64,000 nucleotides of DNA, taken from the NCBI RefSeq assembly GCF_014203325.1, contig NZ_JACHIV010000001.1, positions 6,387,501 through 6,451,500 of the forward strand, read 5' to 3'. A program made the translations under genes and the position numbers. Below the pieces are notes generated by a model. It did not search any database and was not told the DNA's origin. It saw only the letters and a list, made by a program, of their open reading frames with translations. Below are positions 8,399-48,870 of this stretch, piece after piece. The stretch's first letter is position 1; the number at the start of each line of letters is the position of its first letter. Origin of the DNA: Saccharopolyspora gloriosae. Lineage in GTDB: Bacteria; Actinomycetota; Actinomycetes; Mycobacteriales; Pseudonocardiaceae.

Positions 8399-8471
8399 GC
8401 GGATGTAGCGCAGCTGGTAGCGCATCACCTTGCCAAGGTGAGGGTCGCGGGTTCGAGTCCCGTCATCCGCT
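8399..8471 (+). tRNA. tRNA-Gly (anticodon GCC)
   Basis: A complete cloverleaf can be drawn. Acceptor GCGGATG pairs with CATCCGC, the anticodon stem is TCACC/GGTGA with loop TTGCCAA (anticodon GCC at 8432-8434), and the T arm contains GGTTCGAGTCC. The discriminator base is T at 8471 and CCA is not encoded. A strong hairpin terminator follows directly. Confidence 0.97.
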
Positions 8472-12229: not shown

Positions 12230-13432
12230 GTGACCTGGCAAGACGAGCTGCACAATCTCGACGCCGAACTCGCGGCAGGCAGGATCTCCGCCGAGGAGTA
12301 CCGCTCCCGGCGGGACGCGTTGATCGGCAGGTCGCAGGGCGGACCCGCGTCAGGCGACTTCCCGCAGCAGCCCGGAACTCCTTCCGGTGGCTTCCCCCAA
12401 CAGGGGACCCCGCCCGGTGGCCAGCAGAACCCGAGCCCGTTCCCTCCCGCGTTCAACTGGGGCGCCGCCGCCGCGCAAGGCGCGCAGGCCGCCCAGCAAC
12501 CGCAGCAGCCGCAGCCGTCGAACGAGTCCACGCAGGTCGTGCAGAACCCGATGGCGCAGCAGTCGGAGAGCACGCAGGTCGTCAACGTCGGCCAGCAGCA
12601 GCCCCAGCAGTGGGGGCAGCAGCCGCAGCCGCAGTGGAACCAGCAGCCGGGTTGGAACACCGGCGAGAACGCCGGTTCGCCCTGGGGTGACCCGGATCAG
12701 CCGCCGGCACCGGAGCACGGCGACACCAGCTGGATGCGGCAGGGCCCGGAGGTCTTCGAGGTCGGCGACGGCTCCTCGAAGGGCAAGACCATCGCGGGCA
12801 TCTCGCTCGGCGCGGTGCTGCTGGTCGGAGTCATCGTCGCCGGCGTCTTCTACTTCACCTCCGGTGGCGACGAGGCGGCACCGCCGCAGCCGACGGAGCA
12901 GCAGGCGCCGCCGGTGCCGACGCCCGAACCGCTGCCGGAGCCGCCGGCCGCGAAGCCCGCTCCGGTGGCCACCCCCGAGGTGCTGGTCGCCCCGCCGCCC
13001 GGTCAGCCGCACCCGTACAACGGGCCGCTGGACCGCCCGGCGCTGGAGAACAGCCCGAAGGCGGGCGTGCTGCGCGATCCGGTGCGCAACGCCGCACTGC
13101 AGGGCGGCTTGATCGACGGCTTCTTCAGCCGCAGCGACGGCGCGGCGACGTCGGTGCTGCTCACCGTGCGGATGCCGGACCCGACGGCGGCGCAGGCCGT
13201 GGCGCAGGCCTACTTGGACGACCAGCAGGGCCTCAGCGTCAACGAGGACCTCTCCTACCAGGGCGTCGAGGTGATGACGACCGGCGGCGGCGTGTACCGC
13301 ACCGCCTACGTCGCGCACGGCTGGGCGATCATCGTCGACGTCAGCGCGCAGGACAAGGCGGCCGCGGAGACGGCGTTCAAGCAGCTGCTCGACCAGCAGC
13401 TCGCCCAGACCCCGCCCACGATCCGCGACTGA
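12230..13432 (+). CDS. Gln/Pro-rich single-pass membrane protein with N-terminal SHOCT-like motif
   Basis: An unrecognised 400-residue protein. It opens with a short amphipathic module (WQDELHNLDAELAAGRISAEEYRSRRDALIG) resembling SHOCT-type oligomerisation motifs, then a Gln/Pro/Gly-rich linker to about residue 185. A membrane helix (TIAGISLGAVLLVGVIVAGVFYF, about 188-212) follows, then a Pro/Glu/Ala-rich spacer and a folded extracytoplasmic domain (about 270-400, DRPALENSPKAGVLRDPVRNAALQG... to the end). The topology suggests a cytoplasmic N-terminus and an exported C-terminal domain. GTG 12230 is preceded by GGAAAGG at good spacing. It is divergent from the acyltransferase. No function can be assigned. 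Confidence 0.75.
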   Translation: MTWQDELHNLDAELAAGRISAEEYRSRRDALIGRSQGGPASGDFPQQPGTPSGGFPQQGTPPGGQQNPSPFPPAFNWGAAAAQGAQAAQQPQQPQPSNESTQVVQNPMAQQSESTQVVNVGQQQPQQWGQQPQPQWNQQPGWNTGENAGSPWGDPDQPPAPEHGDTSWMRQGPEVFEVGDGSSKGKTIAGISLGAVLLVGVIVAGVFYFTSGGDEAAPPQPTEQQAPPVPTPEPLPEPPAAKPAPVATPEVLVAPPPGQPHPYNGPLDRPALENSPKAGVLRDPVRNAALQGGLIDGFFSRSDGAATSVLLTVRMPDPTAAQAVAQAYLDDQQGLSVNEDLSYQGVEVMTTGGGVYRTAYVAHGWAIIVDVSAQDKAAAETAFKQLLDQQLAQTPPTIRD

Positions 13433-13490
13433 ATTTCCCATCAGCAATTGACTGCTTCCACGGCTTGTTTTGCTGTGGTGGTGCGGTAGC

Positions 13491-13647
13491 GGAACCTCAG
13501 CGGCTTCCTCGCTGCGGGATCTTTTTTCCAAGTGGCTCCGCCACGAGGAAAAAAGCTGTCCTCGCGAGGAAGCCGCTGAGAACCCGCCGGTGAGCGGCTT
13601 TTCGACGTGGGCTATGTGCTTCGCACATACAGGCACGGCTTCGCCGC
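13491..13647 (+). repeat. Nested-palindrome repeat element, copy A
   Basis: This 157-bp element recurs at 22770-22926 with about 10 mismatches and no gaps. Its core is a nested hairpin. The outer 17-bp arms are CTCAGCGGCTTCCTCGC (13496-13512) and their exact complement at 13564-13580. An inner 9-bp pair is CTTTTTTCC/GGAAAAAAG (13521-13529, 13547-13555), and the apical stem is GTGGC-TCC-GCCAC. Two further hairpins follow: TATGTGC-TTC-GCACATA (13613-13629) and CGGC-TTC-GCCG (13636-13646). It lies between convergent genes. The family is unknown to me; options are a nonautonomous mobile or REP-like element, a structured RNA, or a bidirectional terminator. Confidence 0.85.
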
Positions 13648-13889
13648 GAGGCAGACTTCGCTCCGCTCGTCCACGGCACGGCTTCGCCGCTAGGCACGGC
13701 TTTCAGCCGCAAGGCAGGTGTGCTTCGCCGCCCACTGCACAGCTTTGCAGCGAGGCACGGTCTTCGGTCCGTTCGCCGGGTGTGGTTTTGCCCGCCCGCT
13801 GCGCGGTTTTGTCGTGTGGGGGTTGGGAGTTGGGGTTCCGCGGGTCCGCGCAACACCGCAACCACACGCCCACACCGGGGAAGGCTTGG
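13648..13889. repeat. Array of short TTC(G)-loop hairpins beside repeat copy A
   Basis: After copy A the sequence is a run of small stem-loops, mostly CGGC-TTC-GCCG or close relatives, joined by AGGCA-type linkers: GGCACGGCTTCGCCGCTAGGCA, with variants such as CGGCTTTCAGCCG and GCAGCTTTGCAGC-like forms. The same style continues for a shorter distance after copy B. No credible protein is encoded on either strand. Confidence 0.6.
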
Positions 13890-13961
13890 GAACCCGACCC
13901 CCACGCCAAGCCGACCCCGGCTCTAGAACCCGACCCCCACGCCGAGTCGACCCCGGCTTCA
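13890..13961. repeat. Two tandem 36-bp repeats overlapping the glycosyltransferase stop codon
   Basis: Units 13890-13925 and 13926-13961 both read GAACCCGACCCCCACGCC followed by near-identical sequence ending in CGACCCCGGCT. The second unit includes the stop codon (13959-13961) of the large glycosyltransferase gene, so the duplication reaches exactly to the end of that CDS. Confidence 0.8.
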
Positions 13962-16900
13962 GGACCCCGCGCTCAGCTCCAGGAGTTCGGCCAGCGCGGC
14001 ACGGGAGACGTCCGGGCCGAATTGGGCGGCGATGCCCGCCTTTCCGGCCACTGACAGCCGGGACCAGGTCGCGTCGTCGGTGAGCAGCTGCACCGCGGCT
14101 TCCGCGAGGCCGGCCGCGTCGTCGGCGATGAGCACGTCCTGCTCCGGTTTGAGGTGCATGCCCTCCATCGCCAGCGTGGTTCCGACGACCGGCACGCCGA
14201 GTCCGAGGCTTTCCCCGACCTTGCCCTTCACCCCGGCGCCGAAGCGCAGCGGCGCGAGGGTGACGCGGCTGTTCGCGTACAGCGCGTCGAGGTCTTGGAC
14301 CCAGCCGTGCACGTCGACGCCGTCGCCGGCGAGCGCCAGCACTTCGCCGGTCGGGTTGGAGCCGACGACGTGCAGCACCGCGTCGGGGCAGTGCTCGCGC
14401 ACCAGCGGCATGATCTCCCGCGCGGCCCACAGCACCGCGTCCCGGTTCGGCGGGTGGTCGAAGCTGCCGACGAACAGCACGTCGCGGCGTCCGCGCGGGT
14501 GCGCGGTCCCGTCCTGCACGTCGTGCACGTTCGACAGCACCCGGACGTCGGCTTCGGGGACGAGTTCGCCGAGCAGTTCCTGCTCCGCTTCGGACACGAC
14601 GAGGGTGACGTCGCAGGAGCGCACCAGTCCGAGTTCCATCTCGCGGGAGGCGAAGGCCTTGCGGCGCAACGACTTCTCCACGTCGGGTTCTCCCTGTTCC
14701 CCGGCCAGCGCCGCTTGGCGCTGCAACCGCAGGAAGTGGACGTCCACGGTGTCGTAGGCGATCACGGCTTGCGGGGCGCAGGTCCGCAGCTCTTCGACGA
14801 GGCTCCACGCGACCTGCGGGCGGGACAGCACGGCGAGCGTGATCTCGCTGCCCGCTTCGGCCAGGAACGCCTGCTGCAGCTGCGGTTCCGGCAGCACCGT
14901 CACGCCGGCCTGCTGGAGTTCGGTGGTGTAGGGCTCCAGCTTGGCGTGGTTGCCGGGGAAGAACACGACGCGCGCTCCCAGCTGCACGAGCTGTTCGAGC
15001 ACGCGGCGGATCCGCACCGAGCCGGAGTCGAAGTCGGGGCGCGGCACCTGGTGGTCCTTGACCAGCACGAGCGGTCCGTGGTGGCCGCGTTCGCCGCGTT
15101 CCCGCGCGAGCCACAGGTTGCGCGGTGAGGCTTCCGGCAGGTGGTCGGCGAGCGCGTCCCGCCACTTGTCGGCGAACACCTGGCGGTTGAGCTCCTGGTG
15201 CCGTTTGACGCCGGTGGACAGGTCGGTGCCGTTGGAGACGCCTTCGTGGTGCACGACCACGGCTTTCGGCTGCACGACGGTGCGGTATCCGGCGGCGCGC
15301 ACGGCGAACGCGAGGTCGGTGTCCTCGTAGTAGGCGGGCGCGAACCGGGTGTCGAAGCCGCCGACGTCGCGGAACACGTCGGCGCGCACGAGGATCGCCG
15401 CGCCGGAGCAGTAGTCGACGTCGCGCAGCACGTTGTGCTCGGAGGCGTTCGGTTCGCCGTTGCGGCCGAGGTTCCAGCCGGTGCCGTCGGACCAGACGAT
15501 GCCGCCGCACTCCTGCAACCGGCCGTCGGGGTAGACGAGCTTCGAGCCGACGAGCCCGATCCGCTCATCGGAGTCCATTGTGGACATCAGGATGTCCAGC
15601 CAGGACTCGGTGACCTCCGCGTCGTTGTTCAGGAAGAACAGGTGCCGCCCGCGGGCGTGCTCGGCGCCGAGGTTGCAGGCGCCGATGAAGCCGAGGTTGC
15701 GCTCGGCCCGCACCAGCCGCACGCCCTCGCAGGCCGCGAGCCGCACCGCGCTGTCGTCCGGGGACGCGTCGTCGATGACGATCACCTCGAACGGCACCGA
15801 CACCAGGTGCCCGGCCAGGAACCGCAGGCACTGCCGGGTGTAGGGCCACTTGCCGTGCACCGGGACGATCACGCTGACCACCGGGTCGTCGCTGCGCGGC
15901 ACCGAGACCGGCCCCGTTTCCCGCGGCTGCTCGGCCACGACCGCACCCGGCTGCCGACCCAGGGCGAGTTCGTACGCGTCGCGGCGGGCGGTGCCGCGCG
16001 GGGCGACGCGCTCCACGACGGTCCGGTACTTGCGCAGCGCGCGCTGCACCAGCGCGGAGTTCTGCGCGACGAGTTCGGCGTTGCGGCTCTCCAGCTCACC
16101 GGACCGGCGTTCCGCCTCCGCTGCCCGCTGCTCGACGCGCTCCACCGTGTCCCGCAGCCACTCGATGCGCGCGGCGTCGCGCTCCGCGCCGAGCCGGGCC
16201 TCGTCGACCTGGGCTTCGAGGGAACCGAACTCGGCGCGCAGCCGCTGCTGCTCCCGCACCTGCTCGTCGGCGCGGCGCTCCTCGGCCACCCGGAGCTCCT
16301 CCAGCCGCCCCACGGCGGCCTTGAGCTCCTCGGATTCCGCGCGGCTGCGCTCGTAGTGCTCGTTGAGCTTGGCCACGTCGGCGACCGCCTCGTCGCGCTG
16401 GGCGATGATCGGCCGCACCTCGGTCTCCCCCGCCCGGCGGGCGAGGGTGAGGTCGTCGTCGAGCAGGACGGCCGCGGCGGGCAGCTTCGGCAACCTTCGG
16501 TCCGAGGCGACGCCCAGCAGGTAGGTGTGCGGCAGGCCCTGGCGGACCGTCCACGCGCCCGACTCCTCCTGGTGCAGGGTCTGCAACCGGACGCCTTCGA
16601 TGGCGGTGTCGAGGTCCCCCGGGTCGGACGGGGTGAGCACCGAGCCGACGGCGGTGTTCTGCCGGAACACCGCCACGTGCCGGAACGAGCCCTCCAGCAG
16701 CGACTCGAACTGCGGCGCGGTGAGCTCCTTGACGTGGAACGGGTTGTCGTTGCCGTGCTCGTGCTGGTAGACGGCCGTGTCCGGGGTGCTCACGAGCAGC
16801 AGCCCGCCCGGTTCCAGCCGGGCGCGGACCAGCGCGAGCACCGCGTCGTGGTCGGCCACGTGCTCGATGGCCTCGAAGCACACCACCACGTCGAACGGCT

Positions 16901-17213
16901 TCTCGTCGGCCAGCACCTCCGGGTCGGTGATCGAACCGGTGCGGAACGCGATGTCGCGCCCGCCGTAGTGGCGGGTGGCGTGCTCCACCGTCGCCGGGTC
17001 GACATCGAGGCCCACGACCTCGGCGCCCTCCGCGGCCAGCAGCGCGGCCCCGTAGCCCTCGCCGCACGCCAGGTCCAGCACCCGCTTGCCGCGGACGAAC
17101 CGGGCGGCCAGCGCGTAGCGGTGGTAGTGCTCGTAGATGACCTGCACGTCGTCGGCCCAGGGCACGCAACGCTCCCCGGTCCACTCGATCAGCCGGTCGT
17201 TGTCGTCATCCAT
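13959..17213 (-). CDS. Multidomain methyltransferase / coiled-coil / GT2 / GT4-like glycosyltransferase
   Basis: A single 1084-residue polypeptide with four parts. Residues 1-240 are a class I SAM methyltransferase (VLDLACGEGYGAALL near 45-59, then VVGLDVD). Residues 270-400 are a long Glu/Arg-rich coiled coil. Residues 440-700 are a family-2 glycosyltransferase (VVSVIVPVHGKWPYTRQC, FEVIVIDDASPDDS, FFLNNDAEVTESW and YYEDTDLAFAVRAAG). Residues 710-1084 are a GT4-like domain ending in VHGWVQDLDALYANSRV and the donor-site region GAGVKGKVGESLGLGVPVVGT. No membrane segment is visible. ATG 17213 starts the methyltransferase; GAGGAC lies upstream. Such fusions occur in O-antigen-like and capsule loci. 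UDP-glucose dehydrogenase lies 3 kb away, which fits surface polysaccharide synthesis. Sugar and acceptor are unknown. Confidence 0.88.
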   Translation of the reverse strand: MDDDNDRLIEWTGERCVPWADDVQVIYEHYHRYALAARFVRGKRVLDLACGEGYGAALLAAEGAEVVGLDVDPATVEHATRHYGGRDIAFRTGSITDPEVLADEKPFDVVVCFEAIEHVADHDAVLALVRARLEPGGLLLVSTPDTAVYQHEHGNDNPFHVKELTAPQFESLLEGSFRHVAVFRQNTAVGSVLTPSDPGDLDTAIEGVRLQTLHQEESGAWTVRQGLPHTYLLGVASDRRLPKLPAAAVLLDDDLTLARRAGETEVRPIIAQRDEAVADVAKLNEHYERSRAESEELKAAVGRLEELRVAEERRADEQVREQQRLRAEFGSLEAQVDEARLGAERDAARIEWLRDTVERVEQRAAEAERRSGELESRNAELVAQNSALVQRALRKYRTVVERVAPRGTARRDAYELALGRQPGAVVAEQPRETGPVSVPRSDDPVVSVIVPVHGKWPYTRQCLRFLAGHLVSVPFEVIVIDDASPDDSAVRLAACEGVRLVRAERNLGFIGACNLGAEHARGRHLFFLNNDAEVTESWLDILMSTMDSDERIGLVGSKLVYPDGRLQECGGIVWSDGTGWNLGRNGEPNASEHNVLRDVDYCSGAAILVRADVFRDVGGFDTRFAPAYYEDTDLAFAVRAAGYRTVVQPKAVVVHHEGVSNGTDLSTGVKRHQELNRQVFADKWRDALADHLPEASPRNLWLARERGERGHHGPLVLVKDHQVPRPDFDSGSVRIRRVLEQLVQLGARVVFFPGNHAKLEPYTTELQQAGVTVLPEPQLQQAFLAEAGSEITLAVLSRPQVAWSLVEELRTCAPQAVIAYDTVDVHFLRLQRQAALAGEQGEPDVEKSLRRKAFASREMELGLVRSCDVTLVVSEAEQELLGELVPEADVRVLSNVHDVQDGTAHPRGRRDVLFVGSFDHPPNRDAVLWAAREIMPLVREHCPDAVLHVVGSNPTGEVLALAGDGVDVHGWVQDLDALYANSRVTLAPLRFGAGVKGKVGESLGLGVPVVGTTLAMEGMHLKPEQDVLIADDAAGLAEAAVQLLTDDATWSRLSVAGKAGIAAQFGPDVSRAALAELLELSAGS

Positions 17214-17389
17214 CGCGTCTGTCCTCGACCCCAGTGCCCGTCGTTGCTGTTCACGCGGGTGGCGGGCCTCGGCGGCGCGCGAACGCGCACCGGCCGGAGC
17301 GGAACCTGCCCGGACCCACCCGTTCGTGGTGCAGGCTAGCCCGTCGGCACCCCGGCCAGGTGCGGGATGCGGGCAACCCGGCGCACCCC

Positions 17390-17409
17390 GCATGAGAAAG
17401 TTCTCATGC
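17390..17409. promoter_or_regulatory. Palindrome and direct repeats upstream of the two-component system, candidate autoregulatory site
   Basis: GCATGAGAAAGTTCTCATGC has perfect 9-bp arms around AG. The right half continues as TTCTCATGCCGGTTTCATCCCC, giving two TTC/TTTCAT half-sites 11 bp apart, a spacing typical of OmpR-family regulator binding. It lies 44-63 bp before the start at 17453. Binding by the regulator at 19178 is an inference. Confidence 0.5.
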
Positions 17410-17452
17410 CGGTTTCATCCCCGTTCCAGGTCGCGGCGGCGAAGATGAAGTC

Positions 17453-17722
17453 ATGAGGCCGGTGACCAGATTGCCGCTGCTCATCGCCGCGCTGGCCCTG
17501 CCGATCGCCGTGGTGCTGTTCAGCTACGCCGTGACCAACGGACCCCGCAACCCGCAGGTACCCGCCGAAGTCCACGTGGGCGACGTGTCGGGCCCCGGTC
17601 AGCCGGGCGGGAGTCCGACGCTCGTGCCCGCGACGACCACGTCGCCGCCCGCCGACCTGCCGCCGCCGGAACCGGAAGATGACGACGACGAACCCGACGA
17701 CGACCTCGACGATGACGACTGA
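17453..17722 (+). CDS. Small secreted protein with a poly-acidic C-terminus, cotranscribed with a sensor kinase
   Basis: An 89-residue protein with an N-terminal hydrophobic segment (LPLLIAALALPIAVVLFSYAV, residues 7-27) that could be a signal peptide or membrane anchor. A Pro/Thr-rich stretch follows, and the last 15 residues are almost all Asp and Glu. ATG 17453 is the only sensible start. Its 3' end overlaps the kinase start by 11 bp, so the two should be translationally coupled. I do not recognise the family. The acidic tail suggests metal or cationic-peptide binding outside the membrane, perhaps presenting a signal to the kinase; that is inference. Confidence 0.65.
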   Translation: MRPVTRLPLLIAALALPIAVVLFSYAVTNGPRNPQVPAEVHVGDVSGPGQPGGSPTLVPATTTSPPADLPPPEPEDDDDEPDDDLDDDD

Positions 17723-19181
17723 GCCGCGGCGCAGCGGCACCCGCGTCCCGGCTCGCGCGCAGATCATGGGCTGGATGTTGCTCGTGCTGGTCGTGGTGCT
17801 GACCGGGATCGTGCTGCTGGTGTGGCGGTTCCTGCACAACGACGCGATGAACAAGGTGACCGCCTCGTTGGAGCAGGAGGGCGGCGAGTTCGTCAACTTC
17901 GCGCAGGTCGGGAGGCACCCGGTCACCGGTGCGCTGATCGCCGAGCCGGGGGCGTTGTTCGACACCTACCTCCGGCAGCAGTACCCGGACTCGTGGGAGG
18001 TCATGATCGGCGCGTGGGAGACCCCCACCGGCCTGAAGTGGCACATGCAGTCCCAGGACAAGGAGATCCGGGAGGTCGTGCACGACCCGCGCCTGCTGGA
18101 CCGGATCGTCGCGGACCCGAACGGGCACGGGACGGCGCAGACCGCATCCGGGCCGCTGCGCTGGATCAAGATCCAGGCCCACACCGACGGCGGGCAGCAG
18201 GCCTGGTTCATCACCGGTCACTTCACCTCCGCCGACGTCGCCGAGGTGCACGGGGTGGTGCGCATCCTGGTGCTGGTCAGCGCGTTCGGCGTGCTGCTGG
18301 CGGCGGCGTCCTCGTGGGTCGTGGCCGGGGCGATCCTCGCGCCGGTACGCACCGTGCGGCAGGCCGCCGCGGAGATCAGCGAGCACGACCTGACCCGGCG
18401 CATCCCGGTGGAGGGCCGCGACGACATCGCCGCGCTCGCCTACCAGTTCAACGCGATGCTGGACCGGCTGGAATCCGCGTTCAGCACGCAGCGCCAGTTC
18501 GTCGACGACGCCAGCCACGAGCTGCGCACTCCGATCACGATCGTGCGCGGGCACCTCGAACTGCTCGGCGACGATCCGGACGAGCGCGACGAGGTGGTGC
18601 GGCTGTGCACCGACGAGCTGGACCGGATGACGCGCATCGTCGAGGACCTGCTGATGCTGGCCAAGGCCGACCGCCCGGACTTCGTGCACCCCGCCGAGGT
18701 GTCGCTCGCGGAGCTGACCAGCGACATCGACGCGAAGGTGCGCTCCATCGCGGACCGGCGGTGGGTGCTGGAGAGCATCGGCGAGGGCGACGTGGTCGTG
18801 GACGCGCAGCGGCTCACCCAGGCCGTGGTGCAGCTCGCGCAGAACGCGGTGCAGCACACGGAGGACGGCGCGGAGATCCGCATCGGGTCCACGCTGAGCC
18901 TGGGGCGGCTGACGCTGTGGGTCACCGACCGCGGGCCGGGGGTGGATCCCGCCGAGGTGGAGCAGATCTTCGCCCGGTTCGCGCACGGCAGCGGGCCCGG
19001 ACGCGGCGGTGCGGGGCTCGGGCTGGCGATCGTCGCGGCCATCGCCGAAGCGCACCACGGGCGGGTGCGAGTGCTGTCCGAGCCCGGCGCCGGCGCCACG
19101 TTCGGCCTGGACCTGCCCGCTCGACCGGGTGCCGCGCTCGGCCCCGCCGCGCCCGCGACCGCTGAGGAGGTCCCCGCATGA
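17712..19181 (+). CDS. OmpR-type sensor histidine kinase
   Basis: About 489 residues: a membrane helix (IMGWMLLVLVVVLTGIVLLVWRF), an extracytoplasmic sensor loop of about 130 residues, a second helix (ILVLVSAFGVLLAAASSWVVAGAI), and a HAMP linker. HisKA follows with phospho-acceptor His in FVDDASHELRTPITIVRGH. The ATPase boxes are AQNAVQHTEDGA (N), DRGPGVD (G1) and GAGLGLAIVAAI (G2). The ORF is open to 17679; ATG 17712 (TTEPRRSG) gives a normal cytoplasmic leader and overlaps the acidic small protein. It overlaps the response regulator by ATGA. Confidence 0.93.
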   Translation: MTTEPRRSGTRVPARAQIMGWMLLVLVVVLTGIVLLVWRFLHNDAMNKVTASLEQEGGEFVNFAQVGRHPVTGALIAEPGALFDTYLRQQYPDSWEVMIGAWETPTGLKWHMQSQDKEIREVVHDPRLLDRIVADPNGHGTAQTASGPLRWIKIQAHTDGGQQAWFITGHFTSADVAEVHGVVRILVLVSAFGVLLAAASSWVVAGAILAPVRTVRQAAAEISEHDLTRRIPVEGRDDIAALAYQFNAMLDRLESAFSTQRQFVDDASHELRTPITIVRGHLELLGDDPDERDEVVRLCTDELDRMTRIVEDLLMLAKADRPDFVHPAEVSLAELTSDIDAKVRSIADRRWVLESIGEGDVVVDAQRLTQAVVQLAQNAVQHTEDGAEIRIGSTLSLGRLTLWVTDRGPGVDPAEVEQIFARFAHGSGPGRGGAGLGLAIVAAIAEAHHGRVRVLSEPGAGATFGLDLPARPGAALGPAAPATAEEVPA

Positions 19182-19840
19182 GCAAGATCCTGATCGTGGA
19201 GGACGAGGCGCGCATCGCCGCGTTCCTGGAGAAGGGGTTGCGCGCCAACGGTTTCGGCACCGCGGTGGCCGGTGACGGCGCCACCGCGCAGGAACTGCTG
19301 CTCAGCGGGGACTACGACCTCGCCGTGCTCGACCTCGGCTTGCCCGGCAAGGACGGTTTCGCCGTGCTGCAGGCCGTGCGCGCGCAGCGGGTCACGTTGC
19401 CGGTGATCATCCTGACGGCGCGGGACTCGGTGCACGACACGGTCGCCGGGCTGGAGGGCGGCGCGGACGACTACATGACCAAGCCGTTCCGGTTCGAGGA
19501 GCTGCTGGCCCGGGTCCGGCTGCGGCTGCGGTCCTCGGACCGCACGCCTGAGGTGACGGTGCTGCGGGAGGGGCAGCTGTCGCTGGACCTGCGGACGCGG
19601 CGCGCGCAGCTGCCGGAGGCGACGGTGGACCTCACCGCACGCGAGTTCGCGATGCTGGAGCTGTTCCTGCGCCACTCCGGGCAGGTGCTGTCCCGGGAGC
19701 AGATCCTGTCGCACGTGTGGGGCTACGACTTCGACCCCGGTTCGAACGTGGTGGACGTGTACGTGCGGGCGCTGCGCCGCAAGATCGGCAGTGAGCGCAT
19801 CCGCACGGTCCGCGGCATGGGCTACCGCCTCGGCGCCTAG
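19178..19840 (+). CDS. OmpR/PhoB-family response regulator
   Basis: A 220-residue regulator. The receiver (1-115) has EDE at the acidic pocket, phospho-acceptor Asp in LAVLDLGLPG, Thr in IILTARD, and Lys in YMTKPFRFEEL. The winged-helix DNA-binding domain (about 125-220) has the typical VDLTAREFAMLELFLRHSGQVLSREQIL and VVDVYVRALRRKIG stretches ending in VRGMGYRL. It is translationally coupled to the kinase (ATGA overlap). The palindrome at 17390-17409 is a candidate target. Confidence 0.95.
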   Translation: MSKILIVEDEARIAAFLEKGLRANGFGTAVAGDGATAQELLLSGDYDLAVLDLGLPGKDGFAVLQAVRAQRVTLPVIILTARDSVHDTVAGLEGGADDYMTKPFRFEELLARVRLRLRSSDRTPEVTVLREGQLSLDLRTRRAQLPEATVDLTAREFAMLELFLRHSGQVLSREQILSHVWGYDFDPGSNVVDVYVRALRRKIGSERIRTVRGMGYRLGA

Positions 19841-20021
19841 GGACTGTGCACGACGGTCTCGTCGGCTCCCTGGCCGCGGGTTCAGGGGCACCGGATTCCT
19901 GAGCCGCCGCAGCTGAGTTCGAGGACCGCCGCGAGCGCCAGTCCCGGATCCGGTGGTCCGGAATCACCCTGGGTCGCGGACGCGTCCGGCCGACGCGCCG
20001 ACTCCCCCGGCACGGGCACCC

Positions 20022-20136
20022 GAGTTGTGCACACCTGTGGACAACTCCGTCCACACCTGTGCACAACTCGGTCCGCAGTGGGGACCGCACACTCCCCGGA
20101 CCTTGGGCAACGGAGTTGTCCACAAGCTGTGGAAGA
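20022..20136. promoter_or_regulatory. Cluster of DnaA-box-like sequences arranged as a palindrome
   Basis: TTGTGCACA (20025-20033), TGTGGACAA (20036-20044), TGTGCACAA (20058-20066), TTGTCCACA (20116-20124) and a weaker TGTGGAAGA (20128-20136). The actinobacterial consensus is TTGTCCACA, so two are exact and two differ by one base. GAGTTGTGCACA (20022-20033) and TGTGCACAACTC (20058-20069) are exact inverted copies. It is not oriC by gene context; a DnaA-binding or titration site is plausible. Confidence 0.6.
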
Positions 20137-20227
20137 ACTGTTTGCGCAGGCCCGTCCGGGAGCGGACCGAACCGGGTCGTCCCCGCGACCGCGCGGCGGT
20201 CACCCGTCGAGCGCTCCCGGCACCGGC

Positions 20228-20251
20228 CGACGACCGACCGGTCGGTCGTCG
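20228..20251. promoter_or_regulatory. Perfect 24-bp palindrome
   Basis: The 24 bases centred on ACCGGT (arms CGACGACCGACC) are completely self-complementary. Between two convergent genes it could be a bidirectional terminator stem without a loop or a protein site. No T run follows. Confidence 0.4.
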
Positions 20252-20403
20252 TGCCCGCACCGGTGGTCCACAGGCCCGGACCGGCCCGGGAGCAGCCTCC
20301 ACCCCGCCGGACGTCGCAACCCCCGGCTCACCCGATCCAGGCCCGGCCGCTGCCCCACAGTGATCAGGGCTACGGCTCGTCCGATCGGCACCGGGACGCG
20401 CCG

Positions 20404-21714
20404 TCAGCCCACGGGGAGCCGGCCCACGCCGCGCCAGGAGATCCCCGCTCGGCGCAGCACGTCCGGGTCCAAGTGGTTGCGGGTGTCCACCACGACCGGC
20501 CCGGCCAGCAACCCCGCCACCCGCGGCCAGTCCAACGCCCGGAACTGCTGCCACTCGGTGAGCACCACGAGCCCGGCCGACCCCTTGGCCGCCTCGTACG
20601 GGTCGTCCACCAGCGACACCACACCCCGCAGCGGAGCCTCGTCACCGCGCAGCCCCGGGTCGCACGCCACGAGCTCGGCGCCGCGCGCGGCCAGCAGCTC
20701 GGCCACCGCCAGCGCGGGCGAATCCCGCAGGTCGTCCGTACCGGCCTTGAACGTCAACCCCAGCAGCCCGAGCCGGACACCGTCGAGCGAACCGGCCACG
20801 CCGACCCCGCACGCGTCGGCGACCTTCGCCACCATCTGCTCCCGCTGCCGCGTGTTCGAGTCGATCGTCGCGCCCAGCAGCTCGAAGTCGAACCCCACCG
20901 ACTGCGCCACCTGCAGCAGCGCCGCGGTGTCCTTCGGCAGGCAAGACCCGCCCCAGCCCGGACCGGGCTGCAGGAAGGACTGCCCGATCCGCCGGTCGTA
21001 GCCCATGCCCTCGGTGACGTCGGAGATGTTCGCCCCCAGCCGCTCGCACAGCTCGGCGACCGCGTTCACGTACGACAACTTCGTGGCGAGGAAGCAGTTC
21101 GCCGCGTACTTGACCATCTCCGCGCTCGGCGCGTCCGTGAGCACCGTCGGCGCGCCCAGCCGCGCGTAGAGCGCCGCGACCCGCTCGGCCGCGTCCTGCG
21201 ACGCCGAACCCACCACGATCCGGTCCGGGTTCAGGAAGTCGTGCACCGCCGAGCCCTCGCGCAGGAACTCGGGATTCGACACCACGGCCACATCGGGCCG
21301 GCCGACGAGTTCCGCTACCCGCGCCGACGTGCCCACCGGCACCGTCGACTTGCACACCAGCACGCAGCCGGTCGGCAGCACCTCGGCCACCTCGGCGACG
21401 ACCGACTCGACCGCCGCCAGGTCCGCGCCGCCGCCCGAACCCATCGGCGTCGGCACGCACAGGAAGACCACCTCGGCGTCTGCCACGGCATCCGCCGAGC
21501 CCAGCACGAACTCCAGCCTGCCCGCCGCGATGCCCTCCCCGACGAGCTCGCCGAGGCCGGGTTCGAAGATGCCGACCTCGCCGCGCGCGAGCCGCGCGAC
21601 CTTCGCCGCGTCCACGTCGCTGCACACCACGCGGTGGCCCAGCGACGCCAGGCACGCACCCGTCGTCAGTCCCACGTACCCCGTCCCGACGACCACGATC
21701 CGACGAGCGAACAC
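20404..21714 (-). CDS. ugd: UDP-glucose 6-dehydrogenase family protein
   Basis: Oxidises UDP-glucose to UDP-glucuronate in two NAD-dependent steps for surface polysaccharide synthesis. The 436-residue product begins with the Rossmann motif VVGTGYVGLTTGACLASLGH. The catalytic Cys lies in GPGWGGSCLPKDT near residue 258, and the C-terminal nucleotide-sugar domain has LGLTFKAGTDDLRDSPAL. GTG 21714 has GGAGG 9 bases upstream; the longer ORF start lacks support. A GDP-mannose dehydrogenase cannot be excluded from motifs alone, but the length and active-site pattern fit UDP-glucose dehydrogenase. The nearby glycosyltransferase fusion may use sugars derived from it. Confidence 0.92.
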   Translation of the reverse strand: MFARRIVVVGTGYVGLTTGACLASLGHRVVCSDVDAAKVARLARGEVGIFEPGLGELVGEGIAAGRLEFVLGSADAVADAEVVFLCVPTPMGSGGGADLAAVESVVAEVAEVLPTGCVLVCKSTVPVGTSARVAELVGRPDVAVVSNPEFLREGSAVHDFLNPDRIVVGSASQDAAERVAALYARLGAPTVLTDAPSAEMVKYAANCFLATKLSYVNAVAELCERLGANISDVTEGMGYDRRIGQSFLQPGPGWGGSCLPKDTAALLQVAQSVGFDFELLGATIDSNTRQREQMVAKVADACGVGVAGSLDGVRLGLLGLTFKAGTDDLRDSPALAVAELLAARGAELVACDPGLRGDEAPLRGVVSLVDDPYEAAKGSAGLVVLTEWQQFRALDWPRVAGLLAGPVVVDTRNHLDPDVLRRAGISWRGVGRLPVG

Positions 21715-21900
21715 GGTGCACCTACCTCCGTCGACAGCGTGCGGACCGACCGGGAAATCCCAGGCCGGAAAGCTGACCTCGCGGAAATCGTGGCACATCG
21801 CGGATGCCGGGAGCGGCGCTTTGGGAACTGTTCACGCGCTGCTGCTCAGGTGGTGACGCACCGGTGTGCGGCCGTTCAAGCACCCGGCACCGGTCCCGAT

Positions 21901-21928
21901 CAGTACTGCACAAGCGAGCTCAGTACTG
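21901..21928. promoter_or_regulatory. Two CAGTACTG palindromes 20 bp apart, candidate operator
   Basis: CAGTACTG occurs at 21901-21908 and 21921-21928; the longer unit GAGCTCAGTACTG is partly duplicated. Two 8-bp palindromes two helical turns apart, 40-70 bp before the SDR start, fit binding by a dimeric regulator on one DNA face. Confidence 0.45.
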
Positions 21929-21968
21929 CTTAACTACGGGCGAACCGATCCCGCACTGGAGGAGCCTC

Positions 21969-22727
21969 ATGCAGATCACCGGCACCGCGGCCATCGTCAC
22001 CGGAGCCGCATCCGGGCTCGGCGCGGCCACCGCCCGCGCCCTCGCCGAACGCGGGGCGCACGTGTTCGGCGTCGACCTGCCGGACGCGGTGACCAGCGCG
22101 GCGCCCGTCGACGGCGTGACCTACTGCGGCGCCGACGTCACCGACGCCGACCAGGTGCAGACCGCCGTGGACCAAGCCGCGGGCGGCAGCGCGCCGCTGC
22201 GCGTCGTCGTCAACTGCGCCGGGATCGGGCCGTCCGCGCGCATCAGCGGCAAGCAAGGACCGCACGACCTCGACCTGTTCCGCAAAGTCCTCGAAGTCAA
22301 CCTGCTCGGCACGTTCAACGTGCTGCGGCTGGCGGCGCCCGCGATCCGCGAGACCGAACCCGACCGGGAAGGCCAGCGCGGCGTCGTGATCAACACGGCC
22401 TCGGTCGCCGCCTACGACGGCCAGATCGGGCAAGCCGCCTACGCCGCCTCCAAAGGCGGAGTCGCCAGCCTGACGCTGCCCGCCGCCCGCGACCTGTCGT
22501 CGGCCGGGATCCGGGTGATGACCATCGCGCCGGGCATCGTGGACACCCCGATGCTCGCGACCGTCAGCGAGGAGTACCGCGAAGGCCTCGCCGCGGGCGT
22601 CCCCTTCCCGAAGCGCCTCGCCGTCCCCGGCGACTACGCCCTGCTCGCCGTGAACATCGTCGAACACGACTACCTCAACGGCGAAGTAATCCGCATGGAC
22701 GGAGCCCTTCGCATGGCTCCTAAGTGA
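21969..22727 (+). CDS. Short-chain dehydrogenase/reductase (type II 3-hydroxyacyl-CoA dehydrogenase-like)
   Basis: A 252-residue classical SDR. The cofactor motif is TGAASGLGAATA, with an acidic residue after strand 2 (VFGVDLPD) indicating NAD preference. NCAGIG follows strand 4, and the catalytic set is Ser in INTASVAA plus YAASK. The C-terminal APGIVDTPML and PKRLAVPGDYALLAVNIVEHDYLNGEVIRMDGALRM match the HSD17B10-like subgroup, which oxidises 3-hydroxyacyl-CoA in fatty-acid or isoleucine breakdown. ATG 21969 has GGAGGAG upstream. It is divergent from ugd and convergent with the TM0106-type nuclease. Confidence 0.9.
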   Translation: MQITGTAAIVTGAASGLGAATARALAERGAHVFGVDLPDAVTSAAPVDGVTYCGADVTDADQVQTAVDQAAGGSAPLRVVVNCAGIGPSARISGKQGPHDLDLFRKVLEVNLLGTFNVLRLAAPAIRETEPDREGQRGVVINTASVAAYDGQIGQAAYAASKGGVASLTLPAARDLSSAGIRVMTIAPGIVDTPMLATVSEEYREGLAAGVPFPKRLAVPGDYALLAVNIVEHDYLNGEVIRMDGALRMAPK

Positions 22728-22769
22728 TCTGTTCTATTTCCGGTCGTTCTGCTTGGGTGGTCGGGTGGC

Positions 22770-22926
22770 GGAACCTCAGTGGCTTCCTCGCTGCGGGATC
22801 TTTTTTCCAAGTGGCTCCGCCACGAGGAAAAAAGCTGTCCTCGCGAGGAAGCCACTGAGAACCCGCGGGTCGTCACCTTCTTGACGTGGGCTATGTGCTT
22901 CGCACATACAGGCACGGCTTCGCCGC
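22770..22926 (+). repeat. Nested-palindrome repeat element, copy B
   Basis: Same length and orientation as copy A (13491-13647). The outer arms are CTCAGTGGCTTCCTCGC (22775-22791) and its exact complement (22843-22859). Relative to copy A the sixth position of the left arm is T instead of C and its partner in the right arm is A instead of G, a compensatory change that preserves pairing. The inner T6/A6 stem, the apical GTGGC-TCC-GCCAC and the TATGTGC-TTC-GCACATA hairpin are unchanged. Most mismatches fall in the roughly 20-bp segment 22866-22882. It again lies between convergent genes, 43 bp after the SDR stop. Confidence 0.85.
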
Positions 22927-22980
22927 AAGGCAGGCCGGCTTCGCCGCCCACTGCCCGGCCTTCGGCCTCTGGTGGGTGTG

Positions 22981-48787: not shown

Positions 48788-48870
48788 TGGGCGAGGAGGG
48801 AGTTGAACCCTCACGTCCTTACGGACACACGGACCTGAACCGTGCGCGTCTGCCATTCCGCCACTCGCCC
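48788..48870 (-). tRNA. tRNA-Leu (anticodon CAG)
   Basis: On the minus strand the acceptor GGGCGAG pairs with CTCGCCC. The anticodon stem GCACGG/CCGTGT has loop TTCAGGT (anticodon CAG, complement at 48835-48837). A long variable arm and the T arm AGGGTTCAACTCCCT complete a class II tRNA; discriminator A, no encoded CCA. M. tuberculosis also has a tRNA-Leu gene next to fhaA, so the position is conserved. Confidence 0.97.

What the first reader, a model, noticed from the sequence alone, without database searches (positions are those of the whole stretch)
13491..22926. Repeat family with a nested hairpin kept by a compensatory base change
Two 157-bp copies (13491-13647, 22770-22926), about 94% identical, same orientation, each between convergent genes. 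The 17-bp outer stem is perfect in both although one pair changed from C-G to T-A, and nearly all other differences lie in one unpaired segment of about 20 bp. The internal T6/A6 stem, apical stem and a second TATGTGC hairpin are invariant. This pattern indicates selection on structure: a structured RNA, a REP/MITE-like element or an unusual terminator.
Basis: seen in the sequence. Interest (0 to 1): 0.78.

Follow-up and report, generated by a model that had tools for sequence, protein, structure and literature searches.

The report
Giant hairpin repeats after stop codons
The two copies belong to a family of several hundred hairpin-forming DNA repeats that sit just after the ends of genes in Saccharopolyspora-type bacteria; their shape is preserved while part of their sequence changes freely, so they behave like an unusually large version of the small mobile palindromes known from other bacteria.

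Summary
The two copies (cores 13489-13587 and 22768-22866) are 2 of at least 268 in this 6.83-Mb Saccharopolyspora-type genome (reversed-pattern control 0). Covariance-model matches occur in 78 of 297 genomes and 15 of 46 genera sampled from its taxonomic family. The conserved unit is a ~99-bp hairpin with an asymmetric internal loop and a hypervariable 7-bp stem block. Pairing is kept through double-sided changes: 15 of 35 pairs within two genomes, 17 of 27 across genera. In 891.5 kb, 58 copies lie between convergent (39) or tandem (19) genes, none divergent. 35 of 58 start 29-46 nt after a same-strand stop codon, against about 4 at random. One subtype is a ~240-bp element with 16-bp terminal inverted repeats and TGA/TCA direct repeats at 6 of 15 elements. 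At orthologous sites the block is often replaced wholesale on both arms: cores are swapped between loci. Best reading: a giant REP/MITE-like mobile palindrome without a RAYT transposase in this genome. No excess of G-U pairs favours an RNA-only role. Termination and the mobilising enzyme are inferred.

The parts
13461..13488 (+). copy 1 leader (A-type, CGGCTTGTTTTGCTGTGGTGGTGCGGTA), about 28 nt after the TGA stop (13430-13432) of the upstream gene, up to the hairpin
13489..13587 (+). copy 1 core hairpin GCGG...CCGC, the unit conserved across genera
13496..13512 (+). copy 1 outer stem, left arm (variable 7-bp block 13501-13507)
13513..13520 (+). copy 1 internal loop, left side TGCGGGAT (near-invariant in the family)
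13521..13555 (+). copy 1 inner stem C-T6-CC / GG-A6-G with apical GTGGC-TCC-GCCAC
13556..13563 (+). copy 1 internal loop, right side CTGTCCTC (near-invariant in the family)
13564..13580 (+). copy 1 outer stem, right arm (variable block 13569-13575)
13588..13612 (+). copy 1 segment between core and second hairpin; holds 8 of the 10 differences between the copies
13613..13629 (+). copy 1 second hairpin TATGTGC-TTC-GCACATA (A-type tail)
13631..13767 (+). copy 1 tail array of short triloop hairpins (GGCACGGCTTCGCCGC type), variable between copies; right end not defined
22740..22767 (+). copy 2 leader, after the TGA stop 22725-22727
22768..22866 (+). copy 2 core hairpin
22775..22791 (+). copy 2 outer stem, left arm (block TGGCTTC)
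22843..22859 (+). copy 2 outer stem, right arm (block GAAGCCA)
22892..22908 (+). copy 2 second hairpin TATGTGC-TTC-GCACATA
22910..22976 (+). copy 2 tail array, reaching almost to the stop (22981) of the convergent gene

Best explanation
A non-autonomous, REP/MITE-like palindromic mobile DNA family of the bacterial family Pseudonocardiaceae. SHOWN: a ~99-bp hairpin core with near-invariant loop nucleotides and a freely varying but mostly paired stem block; hundreds of copies; placement just downstream of stop codons, mostly sense-oriented, in convergent or tandem gaps; presence or absence at orthologous sites; a full-length ~240-bp subtype with terminal inverted repeats and, at some copies, TGA/TCA direct repeats; replacement of the variable block at fixed sites by blocks also found elsewhere in the same genome. 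INFERRED: the folded single strand is recognised through loop and stem by an unidentified enzyme that spread the element; cores are homogenised and swapped by gene conversion between copies; insertions survive mainly at 3' ends, where the long hairpin serves, or at least does no harm, as transcript end or bidirectional terminator between convergent genes.
For: Copy number: 268 in the own genome; with a slightly shorter pattern 163, 100, 80, 42, 22, 18 and 3 in seven relatives; controls 0. Structure. Context: 39 of 58 convergent against 14% of the remaining intergenic length, 0 divergent against 33%; upstream neighbour sense in 52 of 58. Turnover: 9 of 13 placed copies have no same-orientation copy in G001 (93-95% identical in long matches); in G002 10 of 22 have none and 5 only an opposite one. 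Clean insertion at G000 6,481,198: relative ..GGCTGAGACC.., here ..GGCTGA[element]TGAACC... The 3 bases lying 3 nt outside the 16-bp terminal repeats are identical on both sides in 5 of 14 elements (about 0.2 expected), each time TGA or TCA, and again at the site. Core swap: 45 of 70 block bases differ between 5 ortholog pairs, against 3 of 90 loop bases and 33 of 150 leader bases; the two G001 blocks occur at other NFXS83 loci. GTGG or GTAG abuts the hairpin in 61 of 75, reminiscent of GTAG REPs (PMC3733652).
Against: No mobilising enzyme was found: Y1_Tnp is absent from G000-G003 and G018, and no terminal-repeat pair marks an autonomous partner (the one pair 0.8 kb apart is two separate short elements). 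Only one empty site is clean; at most sites the gap sequence is too diverged or wholly replaced to show an insertion. 9 of 14 elements lack the direct repeat (5 of these have TGA/TCA on one side only), and its offset was chosen after looking. A-type copies, to which both window copies belong, have no defined right end. Tails without a core (6 of 61 in G000) mostly have ragged ends that fit deletion, not excision. Block type and tail type are not independent. No match on plasmids or phages.
Confidence: 0.62

Rival explanations
1. A structured RNA element: the transcribed hairpin acts as terminator, 3'-end stabiliser or processing site, and selection on RNA keeps the stem.
For: Tight distance after stop codons, sense orientation, none divergent among 58; covariation around a conserved internal loop in several genera, with model matches in 15 genera; at the copy-1 site two relatives have an ordinary terminator-like hairpin instead.
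Against: G-T cells 19 against A-C 36 in the variable block: no wobble excess on the sense strand. No U-tract follows the core. Rfam: nothing above its cut-offs at these sites in the window; at a lax threshold copy 1 gives three matches far below their cut-offs. Presence/absence and terminal repeats point to mobile DNA.
Confidence: 0.3
2. The perfect stems are mainly a by-product of replication: template switching in quasipalindromes turns imperfect arms into perfect ones, without selection on structure.
For: Two G002 copies have the hairpin centre inverted, a sign of strand switching; such mutation is reported in E. coli and yeast (titles and abstract starts of PMC7202029 and PMC3820800).
Against: The asymmetric loop (TGCGGGAT opposite CTGTCCTC) should be corrected too, yet it is kept across genera. 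Caveat: the pattern searches presuppose parts of the loop; the HMM route and covariance model do not require it exactly but favour it.
Confidence: 0.2
3. Only gene conversion between old, immobile copies: the family spread once and is now exchanged and lost in place.
For: Wholesale block swaps with little-changed leaders at two G001 sites; hybrid left/right blocks; ragged core deletions.
Against: Opposite-orientation copy at the copy-1 site in G003, clean insertion, lineage-specific abundant blocks (TTGGTCT common in the G002 list, absent from the 57 G000 copies).
Confidence: 0.2

Closest known systems
GTAG-tagged REP elements (Di Nocera 2013, PMC3733652: outline with abstract, section 5 and passages read)
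   Same: High-copy intergenic palindromes, mainly between convergent and unidirectional genes; subfamilies with alternative complementary stem residues; a GTAG-like tag beside the stem (here GTGG/GTAG); a GTGG variant is reported there too.
   Different: Those are 20-40 bp with 6-13 bp stems; this core is ~99 bp with a conserved asymmetric loop, leader and tail. G-T pairs are said to be frequent there; here they are in no excess. No RAYT in the own genome. The paper does not use the word actinobacteria. [quoted passage not shown]
MITEs (definition recalled)
   Same: ~240-bp B-type with 16-bp terminal inverted repeats, no coding, 3-bp TGA/TCA direct repeats at some copies.
   Different: No autonomous partner found; A-type copies have no right terminal repeat; strong structural conservation of the interior.
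I-shaped (U-tract-free) or bidirectional terminators (recalled)
   Same: Strong hairpin just past the stop codon, between convergent genes, in a high-GC genome.
   Different: Repetitive, sequence-conserved loop, terminal repeats on one subtype; termination not tested.
Integron attC sites (recalled, analogy only)
   Same: Structure conserved over sequence; follows a gene in sense orientation.
   Different: Dispersed, not in cassette arrays; integrase not searched for.

Membership tests
REP (GTAG super-family) | high-copy extragenic palindrome | tested here: met
   268 copies; 58 of 58 in 891.5 kb overlap no called gene
REP (GTAG super-family) | GTAG-like tag next to the stem | tested here: inconclusive
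   GTGG 40 and GTAG 21 of 75 parsed; its last G is itself paired
REP (GTAG super-family) | short unit of 20-40 bp | tested here: not met
   core ~99 bp
REP (GTAG super-family) | cognate RAYT (Y1 transposase) in the genome | tested here: not met
   PF01797 0 in own genome; found in 8 of 22 carriers, absent in G000-G003 and G018; no core beside the 3 loci examined, ~3.4 kb each
MITE | terminal inverted repeats | tested here: inconclusive
   16-bp repeats in B-type elements; none seen for A-type, to which both window copies belong
MITE | target-site duplication | tested here: inconclusive
   TGA/TCA at 5 of 14 elements plus one site with an empty counterpart
MITE | autonomous partner with the same ends | tested here: not met
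   68 terminal-repeat sites at up to 2 mismatches: no pair enclosing a 0.35-4 kb element except one 0.8-kb span made of two short elements; more diverged ends would be missed
Rfam RNA family | match at gathering score | tested here: not met
   only tRNAs in the window
Intrinsic terminator | causes transcript 3' ends | not testable with these tools
   no RNA data
Intrinsic terminator | U-tract directly after the hairpin | tested here: not met
   sequence after the outer stem is AACCCGC..GGTG in both tail types

The most novel reading that the evidence does not exclude
A new class of structure-encoded mobile element: a large hairpin recognised by its shape and a near-invariant internal loop, targeted to TGA stop codons by a still unknown, non-RAYT enzyme, replacing resident terminators and carrying a hypervariable paired block that is swapped between loci as a cassette, possibly keeping hundreds of copies from recombining with each other.
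Probability: 0.22. Interest if true: 0.8.

Novelty: new variant of a known kind. Interest (0 to 1): 0.6.

Why it matters
Hundreds of structured elements at gene ends could set transcript ends across the genomes of a group that includes antibiotic producers (recalled). They offer a natural experiment in which one hairpin has been resampled many times (30 different perfect 7-bp blocks in 162 copies), so that selection on structure, template switching and gene conversion can be told apart. If mobile, they imply an undescribed transposition system with a preference for stop codons. I found no Rfam family above cut-off at these sites, and literature searches listed no paper whose title or abstract start describes the family; of those listings I opened passages of one paper only (PMC3610266).

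Tried and rejected
RAYT mobilisation: rejected for the own genome. Autonomous partner through the B-type terminal repeat: none found. U-tract terminators at gene ends: uninformative, 3 of 39 convergent gaps with and 3 of 77 without the element. Hairpin strength in the first 100 nt after the stop: convergent gaps without the element median -27.0 (shuffled -20.0), divergent control -19.6, element sites -20.6 (shuffled -18.3) kcal/mol; this does not show that elements take over the terminator, and the 45-nt fold window is too short for the 99-nt core. Independence of block and tail type: rejected, 5 of 12 repeated blocks seen with both tails against 9.6 expected; against free exchange between A- and B-type copies. 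Plasmids and phages: no match. PMC3610266 (passages) reports 190 putative intergenic ncRNAs in S. erythraea, not compared. PMC8266576 was seen in outline and abstract only. A3 mixes both strands of each palindrome and was not used for counts. A4 holds 34 of the 36 rows printed; L140:4086 and L125:7402 were left out as poorly alignable. Two of seven ortholog pairs did not parse and are left out of the sums. Several pairings counted as same-orientation are weak (630270, 819566 in G001; 512855, 570244 in G002), and two of the 22 G002 placements (581289, 582655) had inconsistent flanks and count among the 10 without a copy.
Full report
WHAT IS THERE. The two copies are as described. Searching the own genome (G000, 6,825,909 bp, one contig; window = 6,387,501-6,451,500) with a pattern that fixes only the constant parts gives 268 copies (140 forward, 128 reverse) at up to 3 mismatches and none for the reversed pattern. 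BLAST had 429 candidates at first look, of which 40 were scored. In 891.5 kb read directly there are 58; simple scaling gives about 440 if that region is typical, but 268 is the firm minimum. Relatives, with a slightly shorter pattern: G002 163, G003 100, G001 80 (draft), G018 42, G004 22, G005 18, G017 3; controls 0. Contig lengths identify G001 as Saccharopolyspora sp. NFXS83 and G004 as Saccharopolyspora sp. HNM0986; that G017 is S. erythraea is my recall of its genome length. With a covariance model, 78 of 297 genomes and 15 of 46 genera sampled from the family match at E <= 0.001 (at most 13 candidates per genome were scored, so these are not copy numbers; 219 genomes had no match).

ANATOMY. 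Leader (A-type GGTCGTTTTGCT..GGTGGTCGGGTGGC; B-type ends GGGGTCGGGTGGC), then the core GCGG-AAC-CTCAG-N7-CTCGC-TGCGGGAT-inner stem and apex-CTGTCCTC-GCGAG-N7'-CTGAG-AAC-CCGC, then either an A-tail (GACGTGGGC, a TATGTGC or TATTCGC triloop hairpin, and an array of short triloop hairpins) or a B-tail (TCAGCGGC-TTC-GCCGCTGA hairpin). Of the 58 copies 33 are A, 23 B and 2 unassigned; both window copies are A. Fourteen B-type elements have both ends CCTGTCTTTGATCTTG / complement at up to 3 mismatches: 8 of 14 hold the core and measure 224-244 bp, the other 6 (63-152 bp) lack most or all of it. The bases 3 nt outside the ends are the same 3-mer on both sides in 5 of 14, always TGA or TCA; the insertion is a sixth case.

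STRUCTURE IS KEPT. In 162 copies the 7-bp block is perfectly paired in 111, with 30 different perfect blocks; 51 have at least one non-Watson-Crick cell. In 72 cores of G000 and G002 (68 distinct) 97.4% of cells pair, and 216 cells carry changes on both sides (shuffled mean 60.8, 0 of 500 reach it). In 34 cores from several genera 96.1% pair, 17 of 27 pairs have double changes and 164 cells carry them (shuffled 52.8, 0 of 500; the count of further pair types is less decisive, 21 of 500). Even the nominal constant CTCGC/GCGAG becomes CTGGC/GCCAG in L243, L244, L247 and L250. Shuffles do not remove relatedness; in the slid controls, which keep it, the best has 51 such cells. Imperfect block cells are A-C 36, G-T 19, other 21. 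An A-C mismatch on this strand would be G-U on the other, so the sense strand is not favoured; part of the 36 looks like one mismatch shared by descent in HNM0986 and Actinopolyspora loci.

WHERE IT SITS. Of 58 copies, 39 are convergent, 19 tandem, 0 divergent, and none overlaps a called gene (own simple gene finder). Convergent gaps hold 13.7% and divergent 32.7% of the intergenic length after taking off 240 bp per element. In 52 of 58 the upstream neighbour is on the same strand, and in 35 of 58 the core starts 29-46 nt from its stop (random placement in the same gaps: mean 4.1, maximum 14 in 2000 runs). Among the 76 of 85 copies in further loci (mostly other genomes) that had two called neighbours: 32 convergent, 40 tandem, 4 divergent, 61 sense, 1 overlapping a called gene by more than 20 bp. 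The window copies start 58 and 42 nt after their TGA.

HISTORY OF SITES. Copy-1 site: G001 and G002 carry a single strong hairpin between the same genes (-48.5 and -49.5 kcal/mol), G003 a short hairpin (by eye) plus an element in opposite orientation, and G004 and G005 no element (whether they have a comparable hairpin was not settled). Copy-2 site: G001 has two elements head to head; G002, G003 and G004 have an alcohol-dehydrogenase-like gene there (my reading of the sequence), absent in G000 and G001 (G005 not printed). Of 13 G000 copies placed in G001, 4 have a same-orientation counterpart; of 22 placed in G002, 7 in the same and 5 only in the opposite orientation (caveats in Tried and rejected). 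At one site (G000 6,367,147) G001 lacks just the core while leader and tail remain. In five parsed ortholog pairs the two block arms differ at 45 of 70 bases, loop constants at 3 of 90, leaders at 33 of 150. At G000 6,524,308 the leader is 30/30 identical to G001 yet GTGGTCT/AGACCAC has become TGAGCCT/AGGCTCA, a block found at another locus of the same relative (L164). This points to exchange of whole cores rather than slow pair-by-pair compensation at each locus.

INTERPRETATION. High copy number, turnover, terminal repeats with short direct repeats on one subtype, and lineage-specific blocks make this mobile DNA of the REP/MITE kind. The sharply kept asymmetric loop suggests a recogniser. 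Placement after stop codons fits tolerance or use as transcript ends. Against simple REP membership: size, and no RAYT in the own genome. Against simple MITE membership: no partner, and no right end on A-type. Function as terminator and the enzyme remain inferences.

Noticed in passing
window 22728-22980 and G002-G004 equivalents: Three relatives carry an alcohol-dehydrogenase-like gene (read by eye) between the same two flanking genes; in G000 and G001 the gene is gone and hairpin elements occupy the gap.
   Followed up: partly
window 13631-13810 and A-type tails: Arrays of short triloop hairpins (GGCACGGCTTCGCCGC, GGCCTTCGGCC, GGCGTGGCTTCGCCCGCC) of variable length; on the bottom strand some contain GCGAAGC, recalled as an extra-stable DNA mini-hairpin.
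   Followed up: no
G002:C1:925186 and 3714283: The hairpin centre is inverted relative to other copies, a sign of strand switching inside the palindrome.
   Followed up: no
G000 5,977,650-5,977,850: A core-free B-type element flanked on both sides by AAACCTCA, which resembles the start of the core (GGAACCTCA); possibly one repeat inserted into another.
   Followed up: no
leader and post-core segment, many loci: A G-rich direct repeat (GGCGGTGCGGGT.GC or GGTGGTCGGGT.GC type) stands on both sides of the core.
   Followed up: no
window 8399-8471 and 48788-48870: Two tRNA genes.
   Followed up: no
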